A stretch of 36,329 nt of DNA, taken from NCBI RefSeq assembly GCF_000333595.1, contig NZ_BADK01000530.1, forward strand, positions 1 through 36,329, read 5' to 3'. The notes beneath the pieces were generated by a model. That model did not search any database, was not told the DNA's origin, and worked only from the letters and a program-made list of their open reading frames with translations. This DNA is from Azospirillum sp. B506 (GTDB taxonomy: Bacteria; Pseudomonadota; Alphaproteobacteria; Azospirillales; Azospirillaceae). This document shows, in pieces, positions 9,229-24,239 of the stretch. Each line of letters opens with the position of its first letter. Position 1 is the first letter of the stretch. A program made the position numbers and the translations under genes.

Positions 9229-10185
9229 TCAGCTGAAGAAGCGCCCGCGGAAATAGGCGATGGTGCGCTCCAGCCCCTCGTCCAGCGGCACGGCCGGTTC
9301 CCACTCCATCAGGGCGCGGGCCTTGGCGATGTCGGGCCGGCGCTGCTTGGGGTCGTCCTGCGGCAGCGGCTTGTGCGCGATCGTCGAGGCCGAGCGGGTC
9401 AGGCGGATGACCTTCTCCGCCAGCTCCAGCATGGTGAACTCGCCGGGATTGCCCAGGTTGATCGGGCCGGTGACGCCGGCGGGCGTGTCCATGAAGCGCA
9501 GGAAGCCTTCGATCAGGTCGTCGACATAGCAGAAGGACCGCGTCTGCTGCCCGTCGCCGTAGATGGTGATCGGCTCGCCCTTCAGCGCCTGGATGATGAA
9601 GTTCGACACCACCCGCCCGTCGTTGGGGTGCATGCGCGGGCCGTAGGTGTTGAAGATGCGGATGACCTTGATGTCCAGCTTGTGCTGGCGGTGATAGTCG
9701 AAGAACAGCGTCTCGGCGCAGCGCTTGCCCTCGTCATAGCAGGCGCGCGGGCCGGTGGTGTTCACGTTGCCCCAATACTCCTCGGGCTGGGGATGCACCG
9801 CCGGGTCGCCGTAGACCTCCGAGGTCGAGGCCTGCATGATCCGCGCCCCCACCCGCTTGGCCAGACCCAGCATGTTGATGGCGCCATGGACGCTGGTCTT
9901 GGTGGTCTGGACGGGGTCGTGCTGGTAATGGATCGGCGAGGCCGGGCAGGCGAGGTTGTAGATCTCGTCGACCTCGACATAGAGCGGAAACGTCACGTCG
10001 TGGCGCATCAGCTCGAAATGCGGGTTGTCCAGCAGGTGCAGGACGTTGTCGCGGCTGCCGGTGAAGAAGTTGTCGACGCACAGCACGTCGTTCCCGGCCG
10101 CCAGCAGCCGCTCGCACAGGTGGGAGCCCAGGAAGCCGGCACCGCCGGTGACGAGGACACGCTTTCGGTTGGTGAGGGCCGGCAA
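9229..10185 (-). CDS. uxs: UDP-glucuronate decarboxylase (UDP-xylose synthase)
   Basis: 318-residue extended short-chain dehydrogenase that converts UDP-glucuronate to UDP-xylose with bound NAD. The nucleotide motif GGAGFLGSH lies at residues 14-22. The family-specific [10 protein letters not shown] at 80-89, TSEVYGDP (121-128), and Y150/K154 in CYDEGKR identify UXS rather than GalE or Rfb[17 protein letters not shown] is another hallmark. It is the last gene of the long minus-strand polysaccharide operon, 130 bases after rfbA, and is followed by a bidirectional terminator. The UDP-glucose dehydrogenase needed to make its substrate is not in this window. Xylose or a 4-keto-pentose derivative is therefore a likely component of the surface glycan. 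Confidence 0.93.
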
Positions 10186-10297
10186 GGCTGCTTTCCTGTC
10201 TTGGCTGTTGGCGTCGGTGGCGCCCGTCGGTCTTCGGTCTTCGGACCGCCGGGCGACCGCGAAGGAGCAACGCGGCAGCGAAGCCGCCCGATCCTTT

Positions 10298-10325
10298 GTC
10301 TTTAGCCCTTCGTCTTTAGCCTAGC
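10298..10325 (-). repeat. Small tandem duplication at the rfbA stop
   Basis: On the minus strand the 14-base unit GGCTAAAGACGAAG, containing the rfbA TAA stop, is followed at once by GGCTAAAGACAAAG. The two units differ at one position. This looks like a short slippage duplication just past the gene; no function is evident. Confidence 0.6.
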
Positions 10326-21299: not shown

Positions 21300-22293
21300 T
21301 CCACTGCTCGACACCCGTCCCGCGGCCACCGGGGCCAAGGACCGGCCCGCCACCCTTTCCGGGGACGATTTGCCCGCCATCCTGACCGCACCGGCCCGCC
21401 TCACCCACCTGCAAAGGCTGGAGGCGGAGAGCATCCACATCATGCGCGAGGTGGCGGCACAGTTCCACAAGCCGGTCATGCTCTATTCCGTGGGCAAGGA
21501 CAGCTCGGTCCTGCTGCATCTGGCGATGAAGGCCTTCTACCCGTCGAAGCCGCCCTTTCCGCTGCTGCATGTCGACACGACCTGGAAGTTCCGGGAGATG
21601 ATCGACTTCCGCGACCGCATGGCGCGGGAGCTGGGCATCGACCTGACGGTCCACATCAACCGGGACGGCGTGCGCCAGGGGATCGGTCCCTTCACCCACG
21701 GCTCGGCCGTCCACACCGACGTGATGAAGACGCAGGCGCTCAAACAGGCGCTCGACGCCCACGGCTTCGACGCCGCCTTCGGCGGGGCGCGCCGCGACGA
21801 GGAGAAGAGCCGCGCCAAGGAGCGCATCTTCTCCTTCCGGACATCCACCCACCGCTGGGAGCCGAAGAACCAGCGGCCGGAGCTGTGGAGCCTCTACAAC
21901 GGGCGCATCCACAAGGGCGAGAGCATCCGCGTCTTCCCGCTGTCGAACTGGACCGAGCTGGACATCTGGCAGTACATCCACCAGGAGAACATCCCGGTGG
22001 TGCCGCTCTATTTCGCCAAGCCCCGTCCGGTGGTGGAGCGCGACGGCACGCTGATCATGGTCGATGACGACCGCCTGCCGCTCAGGCCCGGCGAGGTGCC
22101 GGAGATGGCCTGGGTGCGCTTCCGCACGCTCGGTTGCTATCCGCTGACCGGGGCCGTGCGCAGCACCGCCGCCACCCTGCCCGAGATCATCCGCGAGATG
22201 CTGCTGTCCACCAGTTCGGAACGGCAGGGCCGCGTGATCGACCAGGACGCCGCCGCCTCGATGGAAGCGAAGAAGCAGGAAGGCTACTTCTGA
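21289..22293 (+). CDS. cysD: Sulfate adenylyltransferase subunit 2
   Basis: 334-residue adenylylating subunit that forms APS from ATP and sulfate together with CysN. The PP-loop SVGKDSS is at 67-73. [26 protein letters not shown] and [14 protein letters not shown] are family hallmarks; the C-terminal KKQEGYF is typical. It has about 30 extra N-terminal residues compared with E. coli CysD (302), probably disordered; the ATG at 21289 could be followed by alternative internal starts. It overlaps the sulfotransferase by 11 bases and shares a TGATG junction with cysNC. It is close in type to NodP. Confidence 0.95.
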
Positions 22294-24239
22294 TGCTGAC
22301 GGATCTCGATCCCGCCGCCGCGTCCGCCGCCGTCGGTCCTGTCGATGGCTCCCCCATGGATGCCGCCGACGAGGTACGGACGTATCTGGCCCGCCAGAAC
22401 GGCAAGGACCTGCTGCGCTTCATCACCTGCGGCTCGGTGGACGACGGCAAGTCGACGCTGATCGGCCGGCTGCTCTACGACTGCAAATGCCTGTTCGAGG
22501 ACCAGCTGGCCAGCCTGGAGGCGGATTCGGGCCGCTTCGGCACCACCGGCGCCGGCCAGCTCGACCTCGCCCTGCTGGTCGACGGGCTGGCGGCGGAGCG
22601 CGAGCAGGGCATCACCATCGACGTCGCCTACCGCTTCTTCACCACCGACCGCCGCAAGTTCATCGTCGCCGACACGCCGGGCCACGAGCAGTACACCCGC
22701 AACATGGTCACCGGCGCGTCGACCGCCGACGCCGCGGTGCTGCTGGTCGATGCACGCAAGGGGGTGCTGACCCAGACCCGGCGTCACAGCACCATCGTCT
22801 CGCTTCTGGGCGTGCGCCATGTCGTGCTGGCGGTCAACAAGATGGACGCCGTCGGCTGGGACCGCGAGACCTTCGAGCGCATCGCCGCCGACTACCGCGC
22901 CTTCGCCCGGCGCATCGGCCTCGACGAGGTCACCTGCATCCCGGTCTCGGCGCTGACCGGCGACAACGTCACCAAGCCGTCGGAGCAGATGGGCTGGTAC
23001 GGCGGCCCCACCCTGCTCGGCCATCTGGAAAGCGTGGACGCCGCGGCGGAGGAGAAGCTCGGCGCCTTCCGCCTGGCGGTGCAATGGGTGAACCGGCCGA
23101 ACCAGGATTTCCGCGGCTTCTGCGGCACGGTGGCCGGCGGCGCGCTGCGCGCCGGCGACGATGTCGCCATCCTGCCCGGCGGCCGGACCAGCCGGGTGGC
23201 GCGGATCGTCACCATGGACGGTGAGCTTGAGGCGGCATTGCCCGGACAGGCCGTCACCCTGGTGCTGGCCGACGAGGTCGACGCCAGCCGCGGCGACATG
23301 ATCGTCGCCGCCGCCGGCCGGCCGGAGGTCGCCGACCAGTTCGCGGCGCATGTCGTGTGGATGGACGAGCAGCCGCTGCTGCCCGGCCGCTCCTACCTGC
23401 TGCGCGCCGGCACGGCGACGGTCGGCGCCCAGGTGACGGAGCTGAAGCACGCCATCAACGTCAACACCCAGGAGCATGCCGCCGCCAAGCATCTGGACCT
23501 CAACGACGTCGGCTTCTGCAATCTGGCGCTCGACCGGCCGATCCCGTTCGACGCCTATGCCGACAGCCGCGAGACCGGCAGCTTCATCCTGATCGACCGG
23601 CTGACCAACGCCACCGCCGGCTGCGGCATGATCCGCTTCCCCCTGCGCCGGGCCTCCAACATCCACCGCCATGCCTCGAAGCTGGACAAGGCGGCGCGCG
23701 CCGGCGGCCTGCAGAAGCCCTGCGTGCTGTGGTTCACCGGCCTGTCCGGCTCCGGCAAGTCCAGCGTCGCCGATGGGCTGGAGCAGGAGCTGCACCGTCT
23801 CGGCCGCCACACCATGATCCTCGACGGTGACAATGTCCGCCACGGGCTGAACCGGGATCTGGGCTTCACCGACGAGGACCGGGTGGAGAACATCCGCCGG
23901 GTGGCCGAGGTGGCGAAGCTGATGGTGGAGGCCGGGCTGATCGTGCTGGTCAGCTTCATCTCCCCCTTCCGCGAGGAACGCCGGATGGCGCGCTCCCTGG
24001 TGGAGGAGGGCGAGTTCCTGGAGATCTTCATGGACACGCCGCTGGAGGTCTGCGAGGCCCGCGACCCCAAGGGGCTCTACAGGAAGGCGCGCGCCGGCCA
24101 GCTACCCCACTTCACCGGCATCGACAGCGCCTATGAGCCGCCGGAGGCCCCGGAGATCACCCTGAAGGGCGCCGAACACGGCACCGACGCGATGGTCGCC
24201 CAGCTGATCGGAGAGCTGCGGCGGCGCGCGGTGATCTGA
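22293..24239 (+). CDS. cysNC: Sulfate adenylyltransferase GTPase fused to APS kinase
   Basis: 648-residue bifunctional enzyme. The CysN part is an EF-Tu-like GTPase: GSVDDGKST (47-55), DTPGHEQY (about 127) and VNKMD (about 182). It drives APS formation with CysD. The CysC part is an APS kinase making PAPS, with Walker [10 protein letters not shown] (about 483), [10 protein letters not shown] and [10 protein letters not shown]. The fused form is the NodQ/CysNC arrangement of alphaproteobacteria. The start ATG at 22293 shares its A with the cysD stop (TGATG). With cysD and the sulfotransferase it forms a self-contained sulfation operon. No assimilatory reductase genes are adjacent, which favours a sulfation role over cysteine synthesis. 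Confidence 0.95.

What the first reader, a model, noticed from the sequence alone, without database searches (positions are those of the whole stretch)
9229..24239. Sulfation operon divergent from an ABC-exported polysaccharide operon
Seen: a minus-strand operon wzm-wzt-(methyltransferase/GT2/GT2)-rfbC-B-D-A-uxs and a plus-strand operon sulfotransferase-cysD-cysNC, divided only by an AT-rich divergent promoter region. Established: CysD/CysNC make PAPS, sulfotransferases use it, and Wzt with a C-terminal domain can recognise a modified chain end. Inferred: a rhamnose/xylose-containing glycan is assembled, modified by methylation and sulfation, and exported. The idea that the sulfate group is on the exported chain is new to this reading and testable. 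The nearest known relative is nodPQ with nodH in rhizobia, where the acceptor is a lipo-chitooligosaccharide.
Basis: partly seen in the sequence, partly recalled or inferred. Interest (0 to 1): 0.7.

Follow-up and report, generated by a model that had tools for sequence, protein, structure and literature searches.

The report
Sulfation genes beside polysaccharide-export genes, Azospirillum
A plant-associated soil bacterium carries a three-gene sulfate-attaching operon back to back with genes that build, methyl-cap and export a rhamnose-rich surface sugar chain; comparison across the genus suggests that the sulfate decorates the cell surface but is not the export signal.

Summary
A minus-strand wzm-wzt-[methyltransferase+coiled coil+2xGT2 in one protein]-rfbCBDA-uxs operon lies back to back with a plus-strand sulfotransferase-cysD-cysNC operon in an Azospirillum genome. 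The sulfotransferase (ST) starts at GTG 20244 (351 aa). Orthologs (78-88% identity) occur in 14 of 44 other genus genomes, in 11 of those 14 next to this wzm/wzt and in 3 elsewhere.

The chain-end idea is only half right. Wzt's C-terminal domain co-varies with the methyltransferase/polymerase protein (r=0.80) but not with the ST (r=0.06). One genome (G002) keeps Wzt and polymerase ~95% identical to an ST-bearing relative without any ST. The export tag is therefore probably a WsaE-like methyl cap, and any sulfate is an internal or optional decoration.

Support for sulfated ABC-exported glycans: a different sulfotransferase family sits between wzm and wzt in four other genomes.

Against: the ST fold is nearest to tyrosylprotein sulfotransferases; strain Sp59b, which carries the ST locus, has a published O-polysaccharide for which the review I searched mentions no sulfate; in A. 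lipoferum 4B cysNC is broken while the ST is kept.

The acceptor is unproven. I file it as a new variant of a known kind (sulfated rhizobacterial surface glycan).

The parts
9229..10185 (-). uxs-like SDR (UDP-glucuronic acid decarboxylase by annotation of relatives)
10316..11179 (-). rfbA, glucose-1-phosphate thymidylyltransferase
11191..12081 (-). rfbD, dTDP-4-dehydrorhamnose reductase (GTG start inferred)
12078..13145 (-). rfbB, dTDP-glucose 4,6-dehydratase
13229..13780 (-). rfbC, dTDP-4-dehydrorhamnose 3,5-epimerase
13784..17242 (-). WsaE-like protein: Methyltransf_24 (69-185), putative coiled coil (~255-385, judged only from weak SMC matches), two GT2 domains
   Evidence: swaps type between strains
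17410..18816 (-). wzt, ABC exporter ATPase with Wzt_C substrate-recognition domain (residues 306-442)
   Evidence: C-domain variable, N-domain conserved
18806..19654 (-). wzm, ABC exporter permease (TTG start inferred from relatives)
19655..20243 (.). AT-rich divergent promoter region; the ST-proximal ~170 nt leader is conserved and travels with the ST even where the ST is displaced
20244..21299 (+). sulfotransferase (Sulfotransfer_3), 351 aa, PAPS motifs [11 protein letters not shown] and [11 protein letters not shown]
21289..22293 (+). cysD, sulfate adenylyltransferase subunit 2 (NodP-like)
22293..24239 (+). cysNC, sulfate adenylyltransferase GTPase subunit fused to APS kinase (NodQ-like)

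Best explanation
This is a surface-polysaccharide locus with a dedicated sulfation operon. RfbABCD supply dTDP-L-rhamnose. The single MT-coiled coil-GT2-GT2 protein polymerises a rhamnose-rich chain and, like WsaE of Geobacillus, probably stops it with a terminal O-methyl group. Wzt_C reads that cap and Wzm/Wzt exports the chain. Divergently, CysD/CysNC make PAPS in an overlapping operon with an Azospirillum-specific sulfotransferase, which transfers sulfate to a cell-surface glycan. The most likely target is an internal or core/adaptor position of the chain made next door; the target is not the end that Wzt recognises.

Shown here by sequence: gene identities, gene overlap, conserved linkage, an ST with PAPS motifs under purifying selection, and Wzt_C/MT co-variation independent of the ST. 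Inferred: methyl cap, PAPS flux to this ST, the glycan acceptor and its position.
For: Families and operon structure. ST orthologs at 78-88% in 14 of 44 other genus genomes, 11 of 14 next to the same wzm/wzt. Window-type cysNC (88-96%) in 9 of 10 ST+ but 2 of 26 ST- same-genus genomes covered. ST distances track wzm (r 0.80) and cysNC (0.77) but not WztC (0.06) or MT (0.22), while WztC tracks MT (0.80, 0 of 5000 permutations). Wzt is exchanged only from about residue 281 onward in the three type C strains. Two type C strains scanned (G011, G016) have MT fused to RgpF (rhamnan synthesis). PF13469 hits lie within 7 kb of Wzt_C 17 times, in 16 of 45 genomes, against 0.23 expected under uniform placement. 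Four of these (G001, G024, G028, G037) are a different 260-aa ST between wzm and wzt. WsaE precedent in PMC2943079 (passages).
Against: The ST fold is nearest to tyrosylprotein sulfotransferases (VIA Z 18.0-18.7, against 13.9-14.5 for the listed heparan 3-OSTs). The ST stays the same while chain types swap, so nothing ties it to one glycan. In 3 of 14 genomes the ST unit is not next to wzm/wzt, and one of these (G024) lacks the window-type exporter (best Wzt 44%). Sulfotransferases are common in the genus: 91 of 108 over-cutoff PF13469 hits are not near a Wzt_C. A. lipoferum Sp59b (G025, full locus) has a published O-polysaccharide of Gal/Rha/Man for which the review searched mentions no sulfate. 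In A. lipoferum 4B cysNC is broken though the ST is intact. Eleven other cysDNC loci of the genus sit by a uxs-like gene with no Pfam-detectable ST within 20 kb. ST also tracks rfbB (0.72), so the wzm correlation partly reflects shared descent.
Confidence: 0.5

Rival explanations
1. The ST sulfates another acceptor (LPS core, a different exopolysaccharide, a lipid or small molecule). Its place beside wzm/wzt reflects co-residence in a plasmid-borne surface-polysaccharide island and shared vertical descent.
For: The ST persists beside three polymerase types; it is displaced in 3 of 14 genomes, 203-207 kb away on the same contig in two; ST distance also tracks rfbB; wzm/wzt/polymerase are kept without the ST in G002.
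Against: 11 of 14 linkage; a second ST family found inside other wzm/wzt loci.
Confidence: 0.3
2. RaxST-like protein or peptide tyrosine sulfation: the ST modifies a small secreted peptide, with cysDNC as the RaxPQ equivalent and the window's type I exporter (2793-6515) as the exit route.
For: Best sequence and fold matches in the PDB are tyrosylprotein sulfotransferases; the RaxST/RaxAB/RaxPQ model (PMC4216712); HlyB/HlyD-type genes lie about 14 kb away.
Against: No small plus-strand ORF of the divergent region is shared widely: the best of 60 plus-strand frames (25 aa or more) matches in 5 of 14 other regions, and none of the 15 best comes from the window. The most recurrent frames are antisense (one of ~29 aa, one of up to 47 aa, each matched in up to 9 other regions) over a leader conserved as DNA. 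By the alignment the position of the TPST catalytic Glu (position recalled) is an invariant Gly (G122), although the model is poor close by. The peptidase_C39 match of the exporter is below cutoff and HlyD is frame-shifted. Peptide genes elsewhere in the genome were not searched.
Confidence: 0.13
3. CysD/CysNC are ordinary sulfate assimilation genes and the ST is incidental.
For: cysDNC are kept without this ST in G002 and G004 and cysNC is broken in 4B; G000 itself shows only this CysNC, with a second CysD-like gene (45%) at a contig end, but the assembly is fragmented.
Against: A second ~40% CysNC on another contig is listed in 33 of 36 other genus genomes, so the window copy is a paralog; it overlaps and follows the ST.
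Confidence: 0.07

Closest known systems
WsaE and the slg cluster of Geobacillus stearothermophilus NRS 2004/3a (S-layer glycan)
   Same: wzm, wzt, a trifunctional methyltransferase + two rhamnosyltransferase protein, rml genes; a 2-O-methyl cap predicted to be read by Wzt (PMC2943079 passages)
   Different: Gram-positive S-layer glycan, no sulfation genes mentioned in the passages seen; sequence homology of the window protein to WsaE was not computed here
Sinorhizobium meliloti LPS sulfation (LpsS)
   Same: plant-associated alphaproteobacterium, sulfotransferase for a surface polysaccharide
   Different: known here only from titles and recall; LpsS sequence not compared; the window ST is operonic with cysDNC and divergent from wzm/wzt
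nodPQ-nodH / NoeE of rhizobia
   Same: cysDNC-type PAPS genes plus a sulfotransferase for a glycan (recalled; Roche 1991 title seen)
   Different: NCBIfam NoeE gives only a 35-residue motif match (24 bits, cutoff 500) and no other nodulation sulfotransferase model is hit
RaxST-RaxAB-RaxPQ of Xanthomonas oryzae
   Same: sulfotransferase plus PAPS genes; RaxST sulfates tyrosine, and the window ST is TPST-like in fold
   Different: RaxST sequence not compared; no widely shared peptide ORF beside the window ST, which is not operonic with a type I exporter
E. coli O8/O9a WbdD-Wzt chain termination (WbdD details recalled)
   Same: methyltransferase plus putative coiled coil, with Wzt C-domain specificity
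   Different: polymerase GTs are fused into the same protein; no kinase domain among the Pfam hits

Membership tests
Sulfotransfer_3 (PF13469) sulfotransferase | match over the curated cutoff and PAPS-binding motifs | tested here: met
   58.9 bits vs 27; R100, G102, R207, S215 invariant across 21 aligned homologs
NodH/NoeE nodulation sulfotransferases | NCBIfam equivalog score over cutoff | tested here: not met
   NoeE 24.4 bits vs 500, the only family hit at E 0.01; whether NCBIfam holds a NodH model was not checked
S. meliloti LpsS-type LPS sulfotransferase | sequence homology to LpsS | not tested
   LpsS sequence not fetched; paper not held
Tyrosylprotein sulfotransferase / RaxST | TPST-like fold | tested here: met
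   best PDB matches by sequence (E 6.2e-12) and by fold (Z up to 18.7); model mean pLDDT 68
Tyrosylprotein sulfotransferase / RaxST | catalytic Glu after the 5'-PSB loop (recalled) | tested here: inconclusive
   aligned position is G122 (alignment), but residues 123-152 have pLDDT under 50; E125 nearby is invariant
Tyrosylprotein sulfotransferase / RaxST | adjacent conserved substrate peptide gene (recalled for RaxX) | tested here: inconclusive
   no plus-strand frame of 25 aa or more shared by more than 6 of 15 upstream regions; antisense frames recur; other positions not tested
CysD/CysNC PAPS synthase (NodPQ type) | CysD and fused CysN-CysC over cutoffs | tested here: met
   TIGR02039 520.6 bits vs 396.6; NF004035 1013 bits vs 715
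ABC-transporter-dependent polysaccharide export with Wzt_C recognition | Wzm + Wzt with C-terminal carbohydrate-binding domain | tested here: met
   PF01061 and PF14524 over cutoff
WsaE-like trifunctional methyl-rhamnosyltransferase | N-terminal methyltransferase + two GT domains in one protein in a wzm-wzt-rml cluster | tested here: met
   domain order; cluster; WsaE description
WsaE-like trifunctional methyl-rhamnosyltransferase | methylates the terminal rhamnose | not testable with these tools
   needs biochemistry
WsaE-like trifunctional methyl-rhamnosyltransferase | sequence homology to WsaE | not tested
   WsaE sequence not fetched

The most novel reading that the evidence does not exclude
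Azospirillum species of the A. lipoferum/oryzae group export a sulfated, methyl-capped rhamnan through Wzm/Wzt. The sulfate is added by a genus-specific TPST-fold sulfotransferase with its own PAPS operon, as a decoration uncoupled from chain termination. Sulfotransferases of at least two different families have been recruited separately to ABC-exporter loci in this genus, making sulfated O-chains a recurrent, strain-variable surface trait of root-associated Azospirillum.
Probability: 0.4. Interest if true: 0.6.

Novelty: new variant of a known kind. Interest (0 to 1): 0.42.

Why it matters
If true, a widely used plant-growth-promoting genus would carry strain-variable sulfated surface glycans, parallel to the sulfated LPS and Nod factors of rhizobia. 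The Wzt_C/methyltransferase co-variation is itself useful: it points to the chemical group that is the export tag and shows a serotype-like cassette swapped inside the wzt gene.

Tried and rejected
1) Sulfate as the Wzt-read chain end: rejected as the main reading because WztC and MT distances correlate (r 0.80) and WztC and ST do not (r 0.06), and because G002 has no ST but a polymerase 94.7% and a Wzt 95.4% identical to those of ST+ G015.

2) A hidden RaxX-like peptide gene in the divergent gap: of 116 frames of 25 aa or more in 15 upstream regions, the best plus-strand frame is matched in 5 other regions; antisense frames recur in up to 9 others. Read by eye, the DNA under the ~29-aa antisense frame is conserved in all codon positions, so I take it as leader or operator conservation; no codon test was run.

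3) A known RNA element in the leader: only a chance-level snoZ6 match (20 bits, gathering score 35).

4) First structure prediction from 15 close orthologs failed (pLDDT 40). A broader 21-row alignment gave pLDDT 68. Residues 1-55 (nearly all), 78-84, 123-152 and 297-310 have pLDDT under 50. No bacterial polysaccharide sulfotransferase was recognised among the PDB rows shown, which excludes nothing.

5) Homologs outside the genus: the alignment search of 398 genomes drawn from the phylum found none at 1e-8 except the window. A single-sequence search of 385 genomes drawn from the class found 12 others at E<=0.001; only two are strong (G584, 32% identity, 2.1e-30; G082, 27%, 1.1e-22), the rest 5e-7 or weaker over parts. 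The genome-contig scan returned only Azospirillum (11 loci).

6) Literature: searches listed no paper that, from title and abstract start, describes a sulfated Azospirillum polysaccharide or a sulfotransferase-wzm/wzt linkage (one search listed 12 of 25). Searches were for pRhico, WsaE and S. meliloti. Beyond listings I saw passages of PMC2943079, PMC4153317, PMC7816849 and PMC6889567 and part 1 of 2 of PMC4216712. The original structural papers on Azospirillum O-polysaccharides were not seen, so absence is weak evidence.

7) The counts used only PF13469 hits over the family cutoff; six sub-cutoff rows and one further row of an already counted gene (G015:C22) were left out. The 0.23 expectation assumes uniform placement and independent genomes, which island structure and relatedness violate; the two ST families, not 17 hits, are the independent evidence.
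Full report
What is there. The window is the whole of contig C613 of a 7.24-Mb, 1142-contig genome; the named carriers of the ST are all Azospirillum. The minus-strand operon runs wzm-wzt-(MT/GT2/GT2)-rfbC-rfbB-rfbD-rfbA-uxs and the plus-strand operon ST-cysD-cysNC. Family scans confirm Sulfotransfer_3, CysD, CysN-APS kinase fusion, ABC2_membrane, ABC_tran+Wzt_C, and Methyltransf_24 plus two Glycos_transf_2 domains in one 1152-aa protein. 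The ST starts at GTG 20244 rather than ATG 20154: relatives break the upstream frame, while AAGGAGG and the start are conserved. ST/cysD and cysD/cysNC overlap.

Linkage across the genus. The ST ortholog occurs at 78-88% in 14 of 44 other same-genus genomes (G007 has two loci with the same score); no other match in that search exceeds 28% identity. The window-type wzm/wzt lies next to it in 11 of 14. In G042 and G026 the ST-cysD-cysNC unit sits about 203 and 207 kb from Wzt_C on the same contig, and in G024 on another contig. Named carriers include A. lipoferum 4B plasmid AZO_p6, A. ramasamyi, A. oryzae, TSH100 and TSA2s, and A. melinis, A. endophyticum, A. picis and A. lipoferum Sp59b. In one search, which covered 36 of the 44, window-type CysNC (88-96%) is in 9 of 10 ST+ genomes (in the tenth, G024, the gene runs off a contig) and in 2 of 26 ST- ones (G002, G004), while a second ~40% CysNC is listed in 33 of 36.

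Which part is the export tag? Across the 12 linked genomes (window + 11; 66 pairs) WztC distances follow the methyltransferase domain (r 0.80, 0 of 5000 permutations), whereas WztN does not (0.21). ST distances follow wzm (0.80), cysNC (0.77), rfbB (0.72) and cysD (0.70) but neither WztC (0.06) nor MT (0.22). Block identities show that type C strains (G011, G016, G042) match the window's Wzt at 91-100% up to about residue 280 and at 35-90% afterwards. Three polymerase types sit behind the same exporter: type A as in the window, type B at ~62%, and type C, in which the methyltransferase is fused to RgpF, the rhamnan synthesis domain (G011 and G016 scanned). G002 lacks the ST altogether, with wzm and cysD only about 120-165 bp apart, yet its polymerase is 94.7% and its Wzt 95.4% (C-terminal part 93%) identical to those of ST+ G015. 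The simplest model is that of WsaE: an N-terminal methyltransferase caps the chain and Wzt reads the cap (PMC2943079, passages). Sulfate, if on this chain, is not the tag.

Does sulfation belong with exported glycans here? In 45 genus genomes, 17 of 108 PF13469 hits over cutoff lie within 7 kb of one of 44 Wzt_C domains, in 16 genomes, against 0.23 expected under uniform placement (not corrected for relatedness or islands); the other 91 hits do not. Thirteen of the 17 are the window's ortholog. The other four (G001, G024, G028, G037) belong to a different 260-aa family (the other three are 73-83% identical to that of G001, with no BLASTP match to the window ST at 1e-4; Sulfotransfer_1/3), located between wzm and wzt; three of these four loci (not G024) also have a second sulfotransferase-like gene just after wzt, sub-threshold in Pfam for the one tested. 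G001 has cysD-cysNC inside that locus. G010 has yet another ST beside a Wzt that gave no Wzt_C match. Of 18 further cysDNC loci fetched (58-88% CysNC), 11 have a uxs-like gene within 1.7 kb of cysNC; the three upstream neighbours tested from that group are GT2 proteins. In those 11 no Sulfotransfer_1, 2 or 3 match lies within 20 kb, so the sugar-locus association of cysDNC does not depend on this ST.

What the sulfotransferase looks like. It carries [11 protein letters not shown] and [12 protein letters not shown]100, G102, R207, S215 and E261 are invariant in a 21-sequence alignment. NG86 omega is about 0.19, median of 55 pairs. Top matches are human and tick tyrosylprotein sulfotransferases, Z 18.0-18.7 with 231-246 aligned residues, rmsd 3.8-4.7 and 19-21% identity; then olefin-synthase and curacin sulfotransferase domains (16.3, 15.7) and, further down, heparan 3-O-sulfotransferases (13.9-14.5). 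This keeps a RaxST-like reading alive. No plus-strand small frame is shared by more than 6 of 15 upstream regions, though antisense frames recur. Fold alone does not decide substrate.

Evidence against the glycan reading. Its published O-polysaccharide is described as a Gal backbone with a Rha/Man side chain, and the review contains no occurrence of sulfat- or sulphat-. That repeat also does not look like the product of a two-GT polymerase (inference), so it may be a different polymer. In A. lipoferum 4B cysNC lacks residues 184-479 and changes frame, while the ST is intact.

Verdict. The acceptor remains to be shown.

Noticed in passing
G001 L083:1883-11422; G024 L070:8346-12751; G028 L113:4259-9506; G037 L114:5472-11748: Second kind of Azospirillum wzm/wzt locus with a different 260-aa sulfotransferase between wzm and wzt; three of the four (not G024) also have a second sulfotransferase-like gene after wzt.
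   Followed up: partly
window 5008-6515: HlyD-type membrane fusion gene appears split between two frames (5008-6195 and 5289-6515), so either a pseudogene or a sequencing frameshift; the tRNA-Met call at 5521-5615 lies inside it on the other strand.
   Followed up: no
window 29644-29700: terC RNA (RF03067, 57.7 bits) between the TPR gene and the DUF2076-like gene.
   Followed up: no
window 33307-33771; L118:24598-25062: infC (translation initiation factor IF-3) lies on the 296-kb plasmid AZO_p6 of A. lipoferum 4B, 100% identical in protein to the window copy; whether a chromosomal copy exists was not checked.
   Followed up: no
window 20074-20243: Leader of the ST gene, conserved as DNA in 15 genomes and carried along where the ST is displaced; near-invariant TAGATCCGGATTAG and TAAAAA blocks and an antisense ~29-aa frame; function unknown.
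   Followed up: partly
L118:15203-16164: cysNC of A. lipoferum 4B has an internal deletion and frame change while ST and cysD remain.
   Followed up: partly
L088-L096, L099, L100: In 11 cysD-cysNC loci of other Azospirillum genomes a uxs-like gene lies within 1.7 kb of cysNC, several with DUF2142-like genes nearby and GT2 upstream in the three tested.
   Followed up: partly
G018:C380:13416-15647, G023:C225:25226-30494, G002:C7:105011-112110: APS-kinase-like domain within about 1-7 kb of a Sulfotransfer_1 match, possibly another sulfation module.
   Followed up: no
window 24906-27598: UdgX-like DUF4130/UDG fusion next to a radical SAM-HHH protein, found in the same order downstream of cysNC in several relatives.
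   Followed up: no
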